The translations under genes were made by a program, and so were the position numbers. From positions 1-27,471 of the IMG/VR virus record IMGVR_UViG_3300005356_000330: 27,471 nucleotides of DNA; one strand, written 5' to 3'. Every line of letters starts with the position of its first letter. Position 1 is the stretch's first letter. Below are positions 294-7,934 of the stretch, one piece after another. The stretch is from a virus. The notes beneath the pieces are model-generated. The model saw only the letters and a list, made by a program, of their open reading frames with translations, did no database searches and was not told the DNA's origin.

Positions 294-3167
294 ATGGCCA
301 CCAAGCAGGCTCTGGCGCGCGCTGAGGAGTCGATCACCGCTACCCTCGCGCAGTCCGATCAGATCCTGCGCCTGGCCGACGGCGACGGCAGGGCCGCGCA
401 GAAGGACCTCCTGAGCGTGCTCGAGGCGGCCGACGCCGAGGTCGCCAAGCGGCTCGCGAAGATCAGCCCCAAGCCGAACGGCGACATGAAGTTCACCGCG
501 GCGCAGGCGATCGCGTACCGGGCGCAGATCGCGGTCGTGATCGAGAAGGTCAAGTACAAGCTCGACCCCGTGGCGACCGACGTCGCAGAGGCGGCGATGC
601 AGAAGTCGGTCAAGCAGGGCGCCTCGCTGCTCGCCAAGCTCGAGCAGAGCTTCAAGGGGGTATCGACCTCGCCGAACATCTTGGCGGCGATGCAACAGTC
701 GCAGGTGGTGCGCGGGCCCAACGCCTCGCTGGTGACGCGCGTGGCGACGAGCCTCGATCGCTACGGGTACGAGATGGGCGGGCAGTTTTCGCGGATCCTA
801 CAGGTGGGGCTGCTCAGCGGCGCGACCCAGGACCAGATGGTGGCGACGCTGGTCGGGCACGGCGGGCCGAAAGGCAAGGTCAGCCTGGCGGCCAAGGAGG
901 TCGCGCCGGGCGTGGTGCAGCGCGTGCGCGAGGGCGATATCCCCGAGGGCCTGTTTGTCCGACACCGCTACTGGGCCGAGCGCATCGTGCGCACTGAGCT
1001 CGCGTATGCCTTCAACGGGGTGAAGCTCGAGCAGATGCGCACCATGCGCGCCGAGGGGCTCGAGGTAAAAAAGAAGATCGTTGCGCACTTCGACTCGCGC
1101 ACGGCGCCCGACTCAGTAGCGGTACACGGCCAGGTGCGCGAGCTCGAGCAGTCCTTCCTCGATGGCGCGGGGCGCTCGTACTTGCAGCCGCCGGGGCGGC
1201 CCAACGACCGCGAGACGATCATCCCGTGGTTTGGCGACTGGGAGGAGACCCCGTCGACCAAGGCGCCCAACCCCGAGGAGGTGGCCAAGGCTGAGGAGCT
1301 GGCGCAGCCCGCCCCAGCGCCCAAGGGCGCCCCGCTGGTGCCGCGCTCGACCGAGGAGCTGCACCAGCTCGAGCAGGAGGCGCGCGGGGCCGTCGAGCTC
1401 GAGCGCGCGCGGCAAGAGGCCCGGGCGCACCAGGAGCTCGCCAACCTCGGCGACGACGTGCAGCACGCCGAGACGCTCGCGGCCAAGGTGCTCGAGCGCA
1501 TCGAGCAGGAAACCAAGGCCAAGCAGCACGCGCTCCAGAAGCTGGCCGAGGAGCAAGCCAAGAAGGCCGCCAAGGCCGCCGAGAAAAAGGCCGCCAAGGC
1601 GATCAAGGCGACCGACGCATCGGTCGGCACCAAGGCGCTCAAGGGCGAGGCGCACCTCGCGCACCTCGAGCTGATCCAGCTCAGCTGGGAGAAGCCGGAG
1701 CACTTCGCCGAGTTCGTCAACATGACCAAGCTCGACGACAAGCTGCCGATCGCGTCGATCACGGGCGCGGTCAAGGTCTCGCCGCCAGTGACCGAGCAGC
1801 TGATCAAGGATGCGCTCAGCGGCTACAACGACGCCGCGGGCAACCCCGTCGCCAACGCGCTCGCCGAGTTCAAGAAGAGCGACAAGTACCCGGCGTTCGT
1901 CGACGAGCTCGCCAAGGGCAAGAGCGCCAAGGCGCAGAAGCTGTTCGCGGCGCTGATCGCCAGCGAGGGCGAGCTCTACGACAAGGCGCTGAGCATGGCC
2001 AAGGGCCTGCCCAAGCTGACTGCCAAGCAGCTCAAGGCCAAGTACAAGCCCGCGCCGCCCCCGGTGCCGCTCGCGCCGCCGCCGGTGGCGAAGGACTACG
2101 TCTTCAAGTCGGGCGGCTCGAGCTACATCGACGTGTACGAGGGCGAGAAGAAGGTCGCGCTCTTTTTCGAGAAGACGCCGGGGGTGTACACGGTCGAGCC
2201 GCCGCCGAAGCTCGCGTCGCACCAGGCCAAGACCTTCAGCACCAAGGAGGAGGCCGCGGTGTACGCGGTCGAGGTCAGCAAGGCGATCCAGGCGCTGCCG
2301 CCAGCGCCCAAGCCCGCGGCGGCCGCGTACTCGTACTCGAGCGAGCCCAAGACCTCGCGCTTCAACCACGCGCCCGAGAAGGTCCCGACCGTGCTCAAGC
2401 CGATCAAGATCGCGGCCGGTGCGCAGAAGGACATCGACAAGCACCGCAAGACGGCGCGCGCGCACTTCGCCAAGCATGGCGTCGTCAAGGTCAAGGAGGA
2501 CCGCGCCTCGATTCGTGGTGGCGTCGACCAGGTGCTCGAGAAGGCCGAGCTGTGGCACCAACAGAAGAAATGGTCCGACGGGATCGGCGGCTGCTGGTAC
2601 TCGAGCTCGGCGGGAGCGAAGTCGATGGCTGGCAAGCTGGTCGCGCACGACCTCAGCCCCGATCACGGCGAAGGCAAGCAGGTCGCCGAGGACATGGCCA
2701 AGCAGGTCGACGATGAGCGCAGCAAGGGCGATCACGAGAAGTATTTCCATTACTCGCGCCTCAAGTACGCCGCGACGCAGGAGGCGATCGAGATCAGGCG
2801 CAAGGCGGGCGAGTTTGCCGAGCACATCGACGATGAAGGGTACGTGCTGCTGTACCGGGGGATCAGAGACGATCAGGCCGCGCACCTACGCAAGGCGCGC
2901 GAGCTCGGCGAGCACACCGAGGTCGCCTTTCGCACCGTCTCGAGCTGGTCGGTCCTGCGTGGCACCGCCGTCAGATTCGCGACGAGCTCGGGCGTCGTGA
3001 TCCGCGCGAGGGTGCATATCAGCCGGATCTTCAGCCAGTTCGAGCAGGAGCGCATCGCGATGGACCGCTTCGGCCACGGCGAATCCGAGTGGATCGTGAT
3101 CAACGAGGATCACAAAGGCACGCAAACGATCAAATCCGAGGACGTGCAGAACCCCCACAACGAGTGA
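294..3167 (+). CDS. Phage head morphogenesis protein (SPP1 gp7/Mu F-like) fused to C-terminal ADP-ribosyltransferase-like domain
   Basis: 957 residues, far longer than a typical 300-400 aa gp7/Mu-F protein. ATG at 294 follows an AAGGCG Shine-Dalgarno-like stretch. Domains in order: an alpha-helical head-morphogenesis part, about residues 1-330, carrying the family signature around 220-320 (RIVRTELAYAFN, then HFDSRTAPDS, VHGQVRELE and a PPGRPNDRE segment); a long Ala/Lys/Glu-rich coiled region with KKAAKAAEKKAAK, about 340-450; helical and proline-rich linkers; a small beta-rich segment, about 600-670; and a C-terminal domain, about 720-957, resembling arginine-type mono-ADP-ribosyltransferases. 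The ART signs are YRG with R855, an SSWS strand motif at 883-886, and E930-S931-E932, giving the R-S-ExE triad. Known: gp7-type proteins sit inside the capsid and can be injected. Inferred: the ART acts on a host or virion target after entry. The fusion is convincing by motif; activity is unproven. Confidence 0.82.
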   Translation: MATKQALARAEESITATLAQSDQILRLADGDGRAAQKDLLSVLEAADAEVAKRLAKISPKPNGDMKFTAAQAIAYRAQIAVVIEKVKYKLDPVATDVAEAAMQKSVKQGASLLAKLEQSFKGVSTSPNILAAMQQSQVVRGPNASLVTRVATSLDRYGYEMGGQFSRILQVGLLSGATQDQMVATLVGHGGPKGKVSLAAKEVAPGVVQRVREGDIPEGLFVRHRYWAERIVRTELAYAFNGVKLEQMRTMRAEGLEVKKKIVAHFDSRTAPDSVAVHGQVRELEQSFLDGAGRSYLQPPGRPNDRETIIPWFGDWEETPSTKAPNPEEVAKAEELAQPAPAPKGAPLVPRSTEELHQLEQEARGAVELERARQEARAHQELANLGDDVQHAETLAAKVLERIEQETKAKQHALQKLAEEQAKKAAKAAEKKAAKAIKATDASVGTKALKGEAHLAHLELIQLSWEKPEHFAEFVNMTKLDDKLPIASITGAVKVSPPVTEQLIKDALSGYNDAAGNPVANALAEFKKSDKYPAFVDELAKGKSAKAQKLFAALIASEGELYDKALSMAKGLPKLTAKQLKAKYKPAPPPVPLAPPPVAKDYVFKSGGSSYIDVYEGEKKVALFFEKTPGVYTVEPPPKLASHQAKTFSTKEEAAVYAVEVSKAIQALPPAPKPAAAAYSYSSEPKTSRFNHAPEKVPTVLKPIKIAAGAQKDIDKHRKTARAHFAKHGVVKVKEDRASIRGGVDQVLEKAELWHQQKKWSDGIGGCWYSSSAGAKSMAGKLVAHDLSPDHGEGKQVAEDMAKQVDDERSKGDHEKYFHYSRLKYAATQEAIEIRRKAGEFAEHIDDEGYVLLYRGIRDDQAAHLRKARELGEHTEVAFRTVSSWSVLRGTAVRFATSSGVVIRARVHISRIFSQFEQERIAMDRFGHGESEWIVINEDHKGTQTIKSEDVQNPHNE

Positions 3168-3193
3168 ACCCGCTTACGTAATGCGGAACCATT

Positions 3194-3227
3194 TTGAGAA
3201 ACGCCGTTTCCAAACTAAGATCGTCTC
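3194..3227 (+). promoter_or_regulatory. Sigma70-like promoter immediately upstream of ATG 3228
   Basis: TTGAGA at 3194-3199, a 16-bp spacer and TAAGAT at 3216-3221. Five of six and four of six bases match the TTGACA/TATAAT consensus. The promoter lies in a 60-bp AT-richer gap after the ART fusion gene, where most neighbouring genes abut. The expected transcription start falls at or next to ATG 3228, and no Shine-Dalgarno sequence precedes that ATG, so the transcript could be leaderless. It would let the small ORF and macro-domain gene be expressed apart from the late operon. Confidence 0.45.
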
Positions 3228-3246
3228 ATGACGAAGAAAGCGCGCA

Positions 3247-3525
3247 GTGCCAGTGCCACCAAGGGATCCGCCGCCGCCGTGGCCGGGCGCGTACGAGCGG
3301 GGGCTCGAGGACCTGCCCGACGTAAGCCCGCTCAAGGGCGACCTCACGGGGCCGCTCGAGCAGTGTTGGATGAACCTCGACGCGGCGGCGCAGGAAAAGG
3401 GCGCGCCGCTCAGCAAGGTCGAGGAAAGGCGGATCCTGCGCGGCAGGCCGTGGCGCAGCCGAAGGGCGCGCGAGGCGCTGGCAAGGGCGCAGGGAAGGCC
3501 GCCGCCGTTCCGGCCCGACGAGTGA
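3247..3525 (+). CDS. Small protein of unknown function overlapping the macro-domain gene
   Basis: A 92-residue ORF from GTG 3247 (GTG 3253 is an alternative) to TGA 3523-3525. I do not recognise a family. It starts with a proline-rich stretch, then a segment with a normal mix of acidic and hydrophobic residues (GLEDLPDVSPLKGDLTGPLE), and ends Arg-rich. Third codon positions are strongly G/C between about 3295 and 3450, whereas the competing frame (from ATG 3228) there has many A/T third positions and gives a low-complexity Arg/Ala/Gly/Lys string. That favours this frame as the coding one. The stop overlaps a GTG at 3522 (GTGA), a typical coupled start for the macro-domain gene. Alternatively, this stretch is the N-terminal part of one longer protein split by two compensating frame changes. 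Confidence 0.5.
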   Translation: MPVPPRDPPPPWPGAYERGLEDLPDVSPLKGDLTGPLEQCWMNLDAAAQEKGAPLSKVEERRILRGRPWRSRRAREALARAQGRPPPFRPDE

Positions 3526-4172
3526 GCGACCCGCACAAGGGCGCCAAGCTCAGCAAGGCGACCAGTCGGATCAAGCTCGCCGAGGGCGACCTGTGGGATT
3601 GGTACGAGAAGGGGCACCGCGTGGTCGTGACCACGAACATCGGCTGGCACCCCGAGACCGGGCGCAACAACATGGGCGCCGGCATGGCCTTGCAGGCGGC
3701 GCTCCGGTTCCCGGGGCTACGGGCGAAGCGCGGGTCGCAGGCGCTCGAGGCTGCGCCGCTCGAGGGCTTCCTCGAACCCGAGGGCCTGGACGTCTGGTAC
3801 GGCTCGCTCTGCGAGCAGATCGGCGAGGAGATGCCCGTGGTGGCGTACCCGCTCGAGCCGCGGATCATCCTGCTGCCGGTCAAGCCGCTGCTGTTCGCCG
3901 ACAACCCCGAGCGCTCATGGGATCAGAAGGGCTCGTACACGCTGATCATGCGGAGCCTGCTCCAGCTGCGCAGCTACCCGGGCAAGATCGCGCTGAGCTA
4001 CCCGGGCTGCGGCAACGGCGGGCTCGACGAGGAGAAGATGGGGCGGCTGGTCGAGAACATCCTCGGGCAGGACCCCGACCCTGCGCGCTTCACGCTGGTG
4101 CGGTTCAAGTCGAAGCTCGCGGAATCGACGCAGGGCGAGAGCTTGTTTCAGCACTGGACGCGCCCGGTGTAA
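3522..4172 (+). CDS. Macro-domain (ADP-ribose-binding / ADP-ribosyl hydrolase-like) protein
   Basis: From the coupled GTG at 3522 the product is 216 aa; the same frame stays open to ATG 3228 (314 aa), but that extension is low-complexity with atypical codon use until about 3450. Macro-domain signs: an initial strand with GDLWDW; a strand and loop VVVTTNIGW followed by N49-N50-M51-G52-A53-G54-M55-A56 then LQAALRFPGL, which is the ADP-ribose-binding asparagine/MGxGxA loop; and a second glycine-rich phosphate-binding loop, YPGCGNGGL, with G162-C163-G164-N165-G166-G167, as in DarG/Poa1p-like macro proteins. Such domains bind ADP-ribose and many remove it from proteins or nucleic acids. The gene lies directly downstream of a head protein with a putative ART domain, so the pair may write and erase ADP-ribose. 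The fold call is confident; the substrate is unknown. Confidence 0.8.
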   Translation: MSDPHKGAKLSKATSRIKLAEGDLWDWYEKGHRVVVTTNIGWHPETGRNNMGAGMALQAALRFPGLRAKRGSQALEAAPLEGFLEPEGLDVWYGSLCEQIGEEMPVVAYPLEPRIILLPVKPLLFADNPERSWDQKGSYTLIMRSLLQLRSYPGKIALSYPGCGNGGLDEEKMGRLVENILGQDPDPARFTLVRFKSKLAESTQGESLFQHWTRPV

Positions 4173-4203: not shown

Positions 4204-4890
4204 GTGCAGATTCAATCCAAGGGCTATCTGAGCTCCGGCTCGAGCGTGTGCGGCGACTGCGGCTCGAAAGCTCAGATCGCCCCCTTCGAGCTCGGGTTCC
4301 GGTACGGCGTCGAGACCTACGCCCAGTGCCGCTCCGGCGAGGTCACCGTCGCGACCCAGCCGCTCGAGTACGTCGCACTCGCGCCCACCGAGCAGATCGA
4401 GGCGATCGAGCTGCTCGCGCTGCGCACGTCGGGCCCGGTGGCGCTACGCCTCGAGGGCGCGCCTGCCTCGGTCTCGACCGCGGCCATCTACCCGGTCGCC
4501 GCGCTCGACGGGCTCACCCTGGCGTTCGGCGTCGACGGCCAGGCCGTCAATGTGGAGTTCCTGCTGGGCGATGCCACCGCGAACGACGTGGCCCGGCGGA
4601 TCAACAGCGCCGCGGCGCTGGTAGGCGTGCCCTTTCAGCCTGCCAAGGTGGGCCAGCTCGGGCAGGTGGAGATCGGCGGGGTCAGGACGGGCGCGCAGGG
4701 CGTGCTGAGCGCCTTTACGGGCACGGCGGTCGCAGCGCTCGGGCTCAGCACGTGGCTCGGGGGGGTGGGCAAGGGCAGCGACGTCGACGTCGACGGGCTG
4801 GTCGTGATGCAGTTTGGCCGCTCGGGCAGCGTCGGCCGAGTGGAAGTGAGCGGGCAGGCCACCGTCGAGGTGCTTGTCGCAGGCGCGTAA
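4204..4890 (+). CDS. Putative head-associated (decoration-type) protein with flagellin-IN-like module
   Basis: 228 residues starting at GTG 4204 behind a GGGGGG run. The N-terminus has CGDCGS (Cys17-x2-Cys20). The C-terminal half, about residues 100-186, follows a recognisable pattern: a beta strand pair (LTLAFGVDGQAVNVEF), GDATANDVARRINSA, then GGVRTGAQGVLSAFTG and VAALGLS. This resembles the flagellin/hook IN-type insertion. A similar pattern occurs twice in the tail sheath protein of this phage at about residues 183-333. The gene lies between the macro-domain gene and the scaffold/capsid genes, so a head surface or accessory virion role is likely but inferred. No enzymatic motif is visible. 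The structured beta-rich composition argues against its being a shadow ORF. Confidence 0.6.
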   Translation: MQIQSKGYLSSGSSVCGDCGSKAQIAPFELGFRYGVETYAQCRSGEVTVATQPLEYVALAPTEQIEAIELLALRTSGPVALRLEGAPASVSTAAIYPVAALDGLTLAFGVDGQAVNVEFLLGDATANDVARRINSAAALVGVPFQPAKVGQLGQVEIGGVRTGAQGVLSAFTGTAVAALGLSTWLGGVGKGSDVDVDGLVVMQFGRSGSVGRVEVSGQATVEVLVAGA

Positions 4891-4918
4891 CACGCAAGCG
4901 ATGGAAGGGAGCGGCCCC

Positions 4919-5569
4919 ATGCCGACAGTTCGCGAAGGTCTCAACAACGGAAATCCCAACTCGATCCCGCACCTGCTCCAGATGGCAGGCGCGGGCGAGG
5001 CCCTGGCGCTGATCCCCCGCACGGTGCGCGGTGCCGTGGCGTCGCACAAGCTCACGCTGCCGGAGAAGGCCAAGGCTGCGCGCGTGCTGATCGCGTACGG
5101 CATGGGCACGACCTCGGGCTACAAGTCGGCGCTCGCGGCCGGCTCGTCGGCGGCGCCTGCGACCGGAGAGGTCACGGTCAACGCGCAGGGCGATATCGTG
5201 TTCGCGACGGCCGACGCGATCACGTCGGCGACCGTGACGTACGTGGCGGTCGAGGGCGAGGTCTTCGAGGAGACCGTCGACGTCGTCGCCAACGAGGGCG
5301 TTCTGCTCGGCACCCGCCGCGCGACGCTCTTGCTCGGCGCGACGCGCACCGCCGGCGGCGCACTCGGCGCGTGCACCATCGTGCAGCGCCCGGGCGTGCC
5401 CGCGGCGGGCCAGGCCGCGATCGGCGCCGCCGATGACAGCAAGGTCGCCTTCGCGGCGGCCGACGCGGTCACGCGCGCGACCGTTCGCTACCTCGCCGTT
5501 CCGGGTATCGGCAACGTGCAGCGCAAGGGCGTCGGCGAGGCGCTCGAGCTCACCGTCGGCGGCGTCTAA
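4919..5569 (+). CDS. Putative capsid decoration/stabilisation protein with internal duplication
   Basis: ATG 4919 is preferred over an earlier in-frame start because GAAGGGAG lies just upstream at good spacing. The 216-aa product has a helical N-terminus (about 1-75) followed by Ala/Gly/Val-rich beta segments. Two related halves are visible: residues about 79-111 (GEVTVNAQGDIVFATADAI then TSATVTYVAVEG) and about 160-197 (GQAAIGAADDSKVAFAAADAV then TRATVRYLAVPG). They are joined by a segment rich in Val, Thr and Leu. Duplicated beta domains of this type are common in head decoration or fibre proteins, and the gene directly precedes the scaffold and major capsid genes. I do not recognise a named family. 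The stop is TAA at 5567-5569; a 92-bp gap follows. Confidence 0.6.
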   Translation: MPTVREGLNNGNPNSIPHLLQMAGAGEALALIPRTVRGAVASHKLTLPEKAKAARVLIAYGMGTTSGYKSALAAGSSAAPATGEVTVNAQGDIVFATADAITSATVTYVAVEGEVFEETVDVVANEGVLLGTRRATLLLGATRTAGGALGACTIVQRPGVPAAGQAAIGAADDSKVAFAAADAVTRATVRYLAVPGIGNVQRKGVGEALELTVGGV

Positions 5570-5661: not shown

Positions 5662-6381
5662 ATGCCGCCCGAGACCAGCCCCGCGGCCCCGCCGCCGCCC
5701 GCTGCCCCTGCCATGCCGCCGCCTACGCCCACGGCGGCCACGCCCCCAGTAACCCCGCCAGCGGCCCCTCCAGGAGCCGCAACGCCGCCTGCCGGCGACG
5801 CGCCCGCCCCCGAGGGGGGCAAGGAGCCGAGCTGGCTCAAGGAGCGGCTCGAGCGCGAGCGCCGCACGGCCATGAAGGCCCTCGGGTTCGACACGCCCGA
5901 GGCGGCGCAGGCCGCGATCGCGCGCGCCAAGGACCTCGAGACGGCTGCCGAGGTCGCGCGCCTGGCGCAGCTGAGCGACCTCGAGCGCGAGAAGGAGCGC
6001 GCCAGCAAGGCCGAGCGCGAGCTCGCCACCGAGCGCGCGCGCGCCACCAAGCTTGAGCAGCAGGGGCAGCTCTCGGCCGCGTGCGCCGAGCTCGGGCTCA
6101 AGAACACCTCGTACGCCGGCTTCCTGTTCGAGCAGGCCCGCCAGGCCGACCCGAACATCACCGCCGACGCCGCGCTCAAGGCCGCGATCGCCGACGAGAC
6201 GCAGCGCGCCGCGCTCGGGGCCGCCCCCGTGCCGACGCGGCAGGTCCCCGCGGGCGGGGCGACGCCGCCCGGCACGCCCCCGAGCCCCGGGGCACAGGGG
6301 CAGGGGCAGACCTTCGACGCGAGCAAGGCCACGGCCGACGAGTGGCAGACCTATAAACGCTCGATCGGCCTGCCGGTCTGA
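5662..6381 (+). CDS. Probable capsid scaffolding protein
   Basis: 239 residues. The N-terminus (1-55) is almost pure Pro/Ala/Thr and likely disordered. It is followed by EPSWLKERLERERR and a long charged coiled-coil (about 60-150, rich in Glu, Arg, Lys, Ala), then a helical part with AELGLKNTSYAGFLFEQAR, and a Pro/Gly-rich hinge (about 190-215). The C-terminus (ASKATADEWQTYKRSIGLPV) is a short helix of the kind that contacts coat protein in scaffolds. Length, coiled coil, disordered ends and position directly before the major capsid gene fit a GPO/DUF4355-type scaffold that directs procapsid assembly and is then lost. ATG 5662 is chosen because a GAGGA element sits eight bases upstream. No protease motif is visible, so fusion to a head protease is unlikely. 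Confidence 0.75.
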   Translation: MPPETSPAAPPPPAAPAMPPPTPTAATPPVTPPAAPPGAATPPAGDAPAPEGGKEPSWLKERLERERRTAMKALGFDTPEAAQAAIARAKDLETAAEVARLAQLSDLEREKERASKAERELATERARATKLEQQGQLSAACAELGLKNTSYAGFLFEQARQADPNITADAALKAAIADETQRAALGAAPVPTRQVPAGGATPPGTPPSPGAQGQGQTFDASKATADEWQTYKRSIGLPV

Positions 6382-6533: not shown

Positions 6534-7934
6534 ATGACAGTCACCCTTCAGGGCTTTGACCCCTCAGTCGTCAACATGATTCAGCAGGGCATCCTTCAGC
6601 GCGGCTTCCAAGAGGCGCTCATGCCGAAGCAGCTTTTCCGCGCCGAGGCCACGCCCGAGCGCTGGGAGGCCAACATCGGCGATGTGAAAATCATCACGCG
6701 CGCCGGCACCATGCCGATCAGCACCAAGCCGCTGCCGCCGGCGCAAGATCCGACGCCCAAGACCTACGCGACCGAGCAGTTTCGCGTCGAGGCCAAGCCC
6801 TACGGCGACCGGCTCCAGACCCACATGCCGACCTCGCGGGCGATGATCGGTAACAAGTTCTTCCTCGACACGCAGAAGCTCGGCGAGAACGCGGGCATCA
6901 CGATCAATCGCTGCACGCGGGACAAGCTCTTTTCGGCGTACCTGAGCGCCGACACGGTCACGATCACGGCGGCGACCACGGGCGCGAGCGCGTTGCGCGT
7001 GGCCAACCTGAACGGCTTCCTCGACCGCCTGGTCTCGGGCGGCATTCAGGGCGTCTCGCCGGCGGCGCCGATCTCGATCCAGCTCGGCGCGAGCAACATC
7101 GCCAACAGCGTGATCGCGGCAGTGCCCGACCAGGCGGGCGAGCCCCAGGGGCCCGGGACGATCATGCTCGGCACGCCGCTCGGCGCCAACCTCGCCGTCC
7201 GCTCGCGCGTGCGCGCGCTGCACCGCTCGCGCATCCTGCGCGCCGGCGGCGCCGGTACGATCGACGGGCTCACCGGCTCGAGCATGCTCACGATCGATAT
7301 GATCATTGCGGCGGTGCAGCTCATGCGCGGCCAGAGCGTGCCCCCACACCCCGACGGCACCTACCACATCCACCTGTCCACCGACGGCGTGACGCAGCTC
7401 TTCTCGGATCCTCGCTTCGCGTCGATCAACAACAGCCTGGGCAACACCGCCGGAATCAACTCCGGCGTCTACGCGGGGCTGATCATCGGCCGAGGCCTCG
7501 GCTGCACCTGGTACACGAACAACGAGACGCCGACCCAGTATAACGTCGAGGCGCTCTACGCGACGGGCAGCAACGCGCTGAGCTCGCCCAACGTCGGCGC
7601 CGAGGTCGTCAACGAGACCGGCGTGCCGGTCGCGCGCACGATCATCACGGGCGGCGGCGCCCTGTACGAGCTGTGGATCCCCGAGGAAGAGTACGAGACC
7701 GAGGTGGGCCTCCTGGGCGTCGCCAAGACGTTCAACGTGACCAACGCCGGCGTCGTGATCAACACCGACCGGATCCGCCACTTGATTCGCAAGCCGCTCG
7801 ACGTGCTCCAGCGCATCGTCGATCAGGCGTGGAGCTTCTCAGGCGACTGGGCGGTTCCGACGGATGTCCTGACGGGCAACGGCGCCAAGTACAAGCGCGC
7901 CGTGGTGCTCGAGCACGCGGGCAGCCTCGCATAA
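6534..7934 (+). CDS. Major capsid protein (HK97-fold; N4-gp56/P22 coat-like)
   Basis: 466 residues starting at ATG 6534. It follows the scaffold gene and is followed by a strong terminator, as expected for the most abundant virion protein. The sequence has a helical N-arm, a segment GDVKIITRAGTMPISTKPL and a region HIHLSTDGVTQLFSDPRF, similar to the helix and strand in N4-gp56-type coat proteins. The end is beta-rich with YELWIPEEEYE, SFSGDWAVPTDVL and KYKRAVVLEHAG. This pattern and size fit HK97-fold coat proteins without a cleaved delta domain; the separate scaffold gene agrees. It would form the icosahedral shell. No insertion or frame problem is seen. The exact family needs a structure or profile comparison; the major-capsid role is well supported by context and length. 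Confidence 0.82.
   Translation: MTVTLQGFDPSVVNMIQQGILQRGFQEALMPKQLFRAEATPERWEANIGDVKIITRAGTMPISTKPLPPAQDPTPKTYATEQFRVEAKPYGDRLQTHMPTSRAMIGNKFFLDTQKLGENAGITINRCTRDKLFSAYLSADTVTITAATTGASALRVANLNGFLDRLVSGGIQGVSPAAPISIQLGASNIANSVIAAVPDQAGEPQGPGTIMLGTPLGANLAVRSRVRALHRSRILRAGGAGTIDGLTGSSMLTIDMIIAAVQLMRGQSVPPHPDGTYHIHLSTDGVTQLFSDPRFASINNSLGNTAGINSGVYAGLIIGRGLGCTWYTNNETPTQYNVEALYATGSNALSSPNVGAEVVNETGVPVARTIITGGGALYELWIPEEEYETEVGLLGVAKTFNVTNAGVVINTDRIRHLIRKPLDVLQRIVDQAWSFSGDWAVPTDVLTGNGAKYKRAVVLEHAGSLA

What the first reader, a model, noticed from the sequence alone, without database searches (positions are those of the whole stretch)
2841..4172. Adjacent ART and macro-domain genes: a possible ADP-ribose writer/eraser pair inside a virion operon
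Seen: the ART-bearing head gene is followed directly by a macro-domain gene with both glycine-rich ADP-ribose loops (NNMGAGMA and GCGNGGL). The macro gene has its own promoter-like sequence while nearby genes are operonic. Known: macro domains of the DarG/Poa1p/ALC1-like groups remove ADP-ribose added by partner enzymes such as DarT. Inferred: the macro protein may protect the producing cell or the assembling capsid from ART self-modification until virions form, may shape host modification, or may counter host ADP-ribosylation-based defence. I know of no described system with a head-fused ART guarded by an adjacent macro hydrolase.
Basis: partly seen in the sequence, partly recalled or inferred. 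Interest (0 to 1): 0.85.

Follow-up and report, generated by a model that had tools for sequence, protein, structure and literature searches.

The report
Phage head toxin with DarG-like eraser
A bacterial virus seems to carry a swappable ADP-ribosylating toxin on one of its head proteins and, next to it, a DarG-like enzyme that could undo the toxin's mark; relatives keep or lack the two together, so they probably work as a toxin and its antidote, but no enzyme activity has been shown.

Summary
The layout is real but needs correcting. The long MuF-type head protein (294-3167) is followed by a small gene (3247-3525) and then a macro-domain gene whose likely start is GTG 3522, overlapping the small gene by four bases, not ATG 3228. 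The only sigma70-like site in the window (3194-3221) precedes the pair. The macro family's closest solved relatives are DarG macro domains. In related viral contigs, MuF proteins with a toxin-like C-terminus have such a macro gene (8 of 9 records, 7 adjacent); short MuF proteins do not (0 of 9). The C-terminus is swapped: R-S-E ARTs in three relatives, a DarT-like fold (by prediction) in six. A distinct MuF backbone carries the same toxin, small gene and macro, so the cassette moves as a unit. The window's own ART call rests only on ordered R-G / S-x-S / E-x-E motifs. Best reading: a virion-borne MuF polymorphic toxin with two-part immunity, a small toxin-specific protein plus an enzymatic macro eraser. 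Head-fused ART plus adjacent hydrolase is already known (Bxa/BAH/Bsi, ARH1-type). New here are the DarG-like macro and the DarT-like domain fused to a head protein. New variant of a known kind; activity untested.

The parts
294..3167 (+). MuF/SPP1 gp7-type minor head protein, 957 aa, with long C-terminal extension (polymorphic-toxin layout)
   Evidence: phrog_595 4.6e-13, phrog_4728, phrog_115, phrog_2468; N-terminal 330 aa 45% identical to L002 MuF
2088..2297 (+). conserved linker module (SGGSSYIDVYEGEKKVALFFE...), shared with sibling MuF toxins
   Evidence: BLASTP 1e-8 with L002; the corresponding module is shared between the unrelated L022 MuF backbone and L002/L010/L025
2853..3095 (+). putative R-S-E ADP-ribosyltransferase motif region: YRGI (2853), SSWS, AVRFA, ESE (3081-3089)
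   Evidence: motif order only; no profile support; AF2 failed, pLDDT 39.8
3194..3221 (+). sigma70-like promoter TTGAGA-16-TAAGAT
   Evidence: only match in the window
3198..3210 (.). palindrome GAAACG-C-CGTTTC between the promoter hexamers, possible operator (inference)
3247..3525 (+). small gene, 92 aa, candidate toxin-specific (structural) immunity protein; its stop overlaps the macro start (GTGA)
   Evidence: GC by codon position; same position as toxin-type-specific small ORFs in siblings; no family hit
3522..4172 (+). macro-domain protein, 216 aa, DarG/ALC1-like
   Evidence: family profile vs PDB 5m3i 2.9e-8 and 5m31 9.4e-6 (DarG macro domains), 7omu 0.016; phrog_335 1.9e-10; NCBIfam DarG 0.024 for the window protein, 2.4e-5 for L002 homologue
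3666..3683 (+). macro loop 1, NNMGAG
   Evidence: invariant in six family members
3882..3884 (+). Lys121 of the LPVKP motif, aligned with the Lys of DarG FPTKKHW (DarG Lys80 is the catalytic Lys in PMC10951314; that it is this Lys is inferred from numbering)
   Evidence: invariant; aligned with DarG
4005..4025 (+). macro loop 2, GCGNGGL

Best explanation
This is a phage-borne MuF polymorphic toxin with a two-part immunity set. The MuF domain puts the protein in the phage head (inferred from homology). The C-terminal cargo, an ADP-ribosyltransferase, is exchanged between phages and is probably carried in the virion and delivered with the DNA (inferred from MuF toxins and T4 Alt). The small gene 3247-3525 and the macro gene 3522-4172 form a translationally coupled pair behind their own promoter. 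The small protein would block this particular toxin by binding; the macro protein would remove ADP-ribose from whatever the toxin has modified, protecting the cell that makes the virions and any resident host. Supported by comparative data here: toxin-bearing MuF and macro occur together, move together, and are absent together. Inferred: catalysis, substrate, delivery, and who is protected.
For: (1) In contigs related by MuF, toxin-bearing MuF genes have the macro gene in 8 of 9 records (7 adjacent, 1 about 8 kb downstream but before the next conserved head gene) versus 0 of 9 short MuF records; Fisher p 4e-4 overall, 0.002 for the MuF-found records without the window. (2) L022 has an N-terminal MuF part with no BLAST match to the others, yet the same linker, C-terminal toxin (33-40% identity), small gene and macro: the cassette moves as a unit. 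(3) Sister MuFs L009 (toxin + macro) and L014 (neither) are joined at 100/99 support. (4) Macros next to toxin MuFs form one clade (95/88) apart from macros in other phage contexts. (5) The small gene tracks the toxin type: one family with the DarT-like toxins of L002, L010, L022, L025, another with the R-S-E toxins of L008 and L011 (translations). (6) The toxins are ARTs: the R-S-E profile's best PDB hits are Vis 7e-4, C3larvin, Tre1, HopU1, Vip2; the second type folds like DarT (8baq Z 8.2, 7omu 6.9; the rows listed are ART-fold enzymes). (7) Macro closest to DarG. (8) The same logic is proved for Bxa/BAH/Bsi and described for Apk2 (PMC11699363).
Against: The window's own ART domain has only motif support. 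L003 has a DarT-like toxin without macro in 58 kb, and L010's macro is about 8 kb away. Counting only adjacent genes in MuF-found records (4/6 vs 0/5) gives p 0.06. Samples are small, partly truncated and related. ALC1-like macrodomains are not known to remove ADP-ribose from arginine (PMC10951314), the usual target of E-x-E ARTs. Macro relatives occur in other phages without an adjacent ART (L028, L032, L034, L035). No integrase was found in four toxin-bearing records of 58-68 kb, so the temperate setting typical of MuF toxins is unproven.
Confidence: 0.62

Rival explanations
1. Counter-defence: the macro is a free-standing anti-DarT/anti-ADP-ribosylation gene that cleans ADP-ribose put on phage DNA or proteins by host defence; its place beside the ART is incidental.
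For: Closest solved relatives are DarG macro domains, which remove ADP-ribose from DNA; the gene has its own promoter-like site; related macros occur in other phages without ART neighbours.
Against: Co-occurrence with toxin-bearing MuF and absence with short MuF; co-transfer with toxin and small gene onto another MuF backbone; position inside the late head module.
Confidence: 0.17
2. Housekeeping macro: an ADP-ribose-1''-phosphate phosphatase or scavenger of ADP-ribose in RNA repair or NAD metabolism, as the phrog_335 name 'phosphatase' suggests.
For: phrog_335 hit 1.9e-10; phage macros are widespread and many are thought to act on small ADP-ribose derivatives (PMC9503650).
Against: In this phage family it sits only with toxin-bearing MuF genes, and the linked macros form a clade of their own.
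Confidence: 0.1
3. The window's C-terminus is no longer, or never was, an ART; the macro and small gene are leftovers of a swapped-out cassette.
For: No database or profile match for the window domain and AF2 failed; the motif pattern was loosened to fit.
Against: Ordered R-G / S-x-S / A-x-x-F-A / E-x-E motifs not seen in any non-MuF ORF or in 100,000 shuffles; same place in the protein as the ARTs of three siblings.
Confidence: 0.11

Closest known systems
Bxa / BAH / Bsi of Bacteroides prophage PhiBxa (PMC11699363)
   Same: MuF-fused ART toxin; adjacent enzymatic hydrolase immunity plus a small structural immunity protein; head-module location
   Different: BAH is an ARH1-type hydrolase acting on arginine-ADP-ribose; here the hydrolase is a DarG-like macro domain, and some siblings carry a DarT-like toxin
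DarT-DarG toxin-antitoxin systems
   Same: ADP-ribosyltransferase paired with a macro-domain eraser; macro nearest to DarG; sibling toxins DarT-like by predicted fold
   Different: toxin fused to a phage head protein; the macro protein (216 aa) is shorter than the 329-338 position DarG models and matches only their macro part; window toxin looks R-S-E, not DarT
MuF polymorphic toxins of temperate phages (PMC5576092)
   Same: conserved MuF N-terminus, swapped C-terminal toxin, small ORF downstream when a toxin is present
   Different: a second, enzymatic macro gene; temperate lifestyle not shown here
Apk2 / Aph1 / Tis1 MuF toxin sets (as described in PMC11699363)
   Same: MuF toxin plus an enzymatic antidote plus a binding antidote
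   Different: alarmone chemistry, not ADP-ribose
Sirtuin-Macro pair of Streptomyces phage Moab (PMC9503650)
   Same: phage-encoded ADP-ribose writer and macro eraser
   Different: free-standing sirtuin, not a head-fused ART

Membership tests
MuF polymorphic toxin | MuF/SPP1 gp7-like N-terminal domain in the head gene cluster | tested here: met
   PHROG head hits; Phage_Mu_F below cut-off in homologues L008 1.8e-4, L002 0.0017; followed by scaffold and major head genes
MuF polymorphic toxin | variable C-terminal toxin domain with a conserved N-terminus | tested here: met
   R-S-E, DarT-like and short forms interleave on the MuF tree
MuF polymorphic toxin | small immunity-like ORF downstream of the toxin | tested here: met
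   3247-3525 and counterparts; immunity function untested
MuF polymorphic toxin | encoded by temperate phages | tested here: inconclusive
   integrase or resolvase only in L022 and L019 records; window is a 27-kb fragment
R-S-E ADP-ribosyltransferase (window domain) | R, S-x-S, E-x-E catalytic motifs in order | tested here: met
   YRGI / SSWS / ESE
R-S-E ADP-ribosyltransferase (window domain) | profile or fold similarity to known R-S-E ARTs | tested here: inconclusive
   none found by sequence; AF2 model unusable
Macro domain, DarG/ALC1-like class | sequence similarity to DarG macro and a Lys at the catalytic position | tested here: met
   5m3i 2.9e-8 for the family profile; invariant PVKP Lys
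DarG antitoxin (equivalog) | NCBIfam NF048014 score at or above cut-off 250 bits | tested here: not met
   13.9 bits for the window, 23.8 for L002
DarTG system | DarT toxin next to the macro | tested here: inconclusive
   DarT-like fold in siblings (model pLDDT 66.6, Z up to 8.2) but no sequence match to DarT; window toxin differs
ADP-ribosylhydrolase acting on the neighbouring ART's product | removal of ADP-ribose added by the neighbouring ART | not testable with these tools
   needs purified proteins
MavL-type Arg-specific macrodomain (DUF4804) | WDxx[S/A]xPGN[D/E] catalytic loop | tested here: not met
   catalytic-loop position reads YPGCGNGGLDEE; no DUF4804 Pfam hit

The most novel reading that the evidence does not exclude
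These phages carry capsid-loaded writer/eraser sets in which one DarG-like macro lineage acts as a general antidote to two unrelated head-fused ART classes, DarT-like and R-S-E. That would be a virion-borne relative of DarTG, and for the R-S-E members an ALC1-class macro acting on a linkage (perhaps arginine) this class is not known to cleave.
Probability: 0.3. Interest if true: 0.8.

Novelty: new variant of a known kind. Interest (0 to 1): 0.6.

Why it matters
It extends MuF toxin-immunity sets from ARH-type to macro-type erasers, suggests DarT-like toxins are built into phage heads, and offers a compact test of which ADP-ribose linkages DarG-like macros can cut. It also gives a simple way to find such sets: look in the variable slot between the MuF gene and the next head gene.

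Tried and rejected
Reading 3228-3521 as an N-terminal part of the macro protein (wrong codon-position GC). Pfam, NCBIfam and PADLOC for the window ART (no relevant hits). tblastn of the window ART against phages and plasmids (no match; two weak unrelated hits). Viral scans with the window ART, the major head protein and the full MuF protein alone (no relatives); alignments were needed. Genome-contig scans with MuF and macro alignments found no cellular or prophage relatives, so the host is unknown. AF2 of the window ART from four sequences failed. A strict R-S-E pattern missed the window. Profile comparison of the two toxin types showed no similarity. Mu transposase model rang nowhere, controls included, so it says nothing; rve found nothing. 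Macro as Poa1p/MacroD class was not pursued, since DarG-like hits dominate.
Full report
What the window is. The window is an entire IMG/VR virus record of 27,471 bases, a fragment with no named host. Its order is portal end (3-287), MuF-type head protein (294-3167), small gene, macro gene, two head-module genes (4204-4890, 4874-5569), scaffold (5662-6381), major head protein (6534-7934), then tail genes including a contractile sheath and a tape measure.

Checking the observation. The MuF protein is 957 aa and hits head-morphogenesis PHROGs. Its C-terminus reads YRGI-(...)-SSWS-(...)-AVRFA-(...)-GESEWI. The macro protein has NNMGAG and GCGNGGL and hits phrog_335 at 1.9e-10. Two corrections are needed. 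First, 3228-3521 read in the macro frame has codon-position GC 0.84/0.74/0.60, unlike this genome's genes (MuF 0.67/0.42/0.93), whereas the ORF 3247-3525 in another frame has 0.76/0.59/0.88. The small ORF is therefore probably real, its stop overlaps GTG 3522, and the macro protein has 216 aa. Second, the promoter-like site at 3194-3221 is the only sigma70-type match in the window and lies in the window's lowest-GC 60-mers, but it precedes the small gene. A 6-bp inverted repeat sits between the hexamers. L009 has TTGACT-16-TATACT 40 bases before its macro; the other siblings show no such site between MuF and macro.

What the macro is. Six family members share invariant NNMGAG, PVKP and the GGL loop. 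Their profile finds DarG macro domains in the PDB, 5m3i at 2.9e-8 and 5m31 at 9.4e-6, then a DarTG fusion, 7omu, at 0.016. The molecule names in that table are 'RNase III inhibitor' and 'Appr-1-p processing domain protein'; that 5M3E (same sequence as 5m31) is DarG is stated in PMC10951314, and for 5m3i it is my own knowledge. NCBIfam and PADLOC DarG models give 2.4e-5 and 3.3e-5 for the L002 macro, but far below the equivalog cut-off. The invariant PVKP lysine aligns with the lysine of DarG FPTKKHW. It is thus DarG/ALC1-like, not a DarG orthologue, and matches only the macro part of the DarG models.

What the C-terminal domain is. Three siblings (L008, L009, L011) carry R-S-E motifs, and the profile built with them finds Vis (7e-4), C3larvin, Tre1, HopU1 and Vip2. 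The window's own domain does not score against that family and AF2 failed on it (pLDDT 39.8). Its support is the ordered motifs: a pattern matched only the MuF-ART ORFs and the window among 3298 ORFs (606,838 aa) and none of 100,000 shuffles. This pattern was loosened after a stricter one missed the window, so the number is optimistic. A second type of C-terminus, in L002, L003, L010, L022, L025 and (cut) L048, has no sequence match, but its AF2 model (pLDDT 66.6, pTM 0.67) has E. coli DarT1 as best structural match (Z 8.2, 156 residues, 4.3 A), with DarT or DarTG entries taking seven of the top eight rows, and the rows below are ART-fold or related NAD-using enzymes too. Foldseek alone was weak (best E 0.018, again DarTG). 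So two unrelated ART-like cargoes use the same slot.

Co-conservation. A MuF alignment found 18 viral loci, macro alignments found more, and a scan with the DarT-like domain found essentially the same set. Whole records were then searched with the macro profile. Toxin-bearing MuF records: window, L008, L009, L011, L002, L025, L022 (macro adjacent behind one or two small ORFs), L010 (macro about 8 kb downstream, still before the next conserved head gene), L003 (none). Short MuF records L004, L005, L006, L014, L016, L017, L018, L019, L020: none. Fisher p is 4e-4 for all, 0.002 for MuF-found records without the window, 0.015 without the distant MuF clade, and 0.06 if only adjacent genes count. 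Records are related and some truncated, so these are guides. On the MuF tree the cargo types interleave, and L009 (toxin and macro) is sister to L014 (neither) with 100/99 support. The linked macros form one clade (95/88), separate from L028 and from macros of other phages. L022 has an N-terminus without BLAST similarity to this MuF family, yet carries the linker, the DarT-like toxin, the same small-gene family and the macro. This argues most strongly that toxin, small gene and macro are a functional unit.

The small gene. With DarT-like toxins it is one family (L002, L010, L022, L025; best BLAST 6e-23). In L008 and L011, whose R-S-E toxins resemble each other, another family appears (GYLxARH...PEAFPxD...AAFxHYVR; translations, judged by eye). 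The window's is unique. This is what toxin-specific immunity proteins look like, while the macro stays the same: the same split as Bsi (binding) and BAH (hydrolase) for Bxa (PMC11699363).

Mechanism and limits. Shown by comparison: a swappable ART-like cargo on a head protein, and a linked DarG-like macro with a coupled small gene. Inferred: head packaging and injection, toxicity, hydrolysis, and protection of the producing cell. A chemical puzzle remains: E-x-E ARTs usually modify arginine (my knowledge), and ALC1-like macros are not known to cleave arginine-ADP-ribose (PMC10951314). Either the toxin targets something else, or the macro has a new specificity. Precedent for macro enzymes as toxin antidotes exists for PARG-type macros against RhsP2 (PMC11833690).

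Comparison with the known. In the open-access library I found no report of a MuF-ART with a macro antidote or of a DarT-like domain fused to MuF; this is not proof of absence. Verdict: a new variant of a known kind, worth a bench test.

Noticed in passing
L011:9929-12757 (same phage L012): This MuF protein has a HipA-like kinase-looking segment (about residues 480-640; Pfam HipA_C only 0.039) ahead of its R-S-E ART, so it may carry two effector domains.
   Followed up: partly
window:2088-2297; L002, L010, L022, L025 MuF proteins: A conserved linker domain (YIDVYEGEKKVALFFE...) of unknown function travels with the toxins across different MuF backbones.
   Followed up: partly
L032, L034, L035 near 7.6-10.5 kb: A second clade of these macros (NPMGAG loop) sits in other phages near sulfotransferase-like and glycosyltransferase-like genes (names by eye), with no ART seen beside it.
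   Followed up: no
L014:4347-5256: Sister of the toxin-bearing L009 has about 900 bases without a clear gene right after its short MuF, possibly the scar of a lost toxin and macro cassette.
   Followed up: no
L009:12562-13347: A pentapeptide-repeat-like ORF (repeated A-N-L-R/C) lies just after the macro gene.
   Followed up: no
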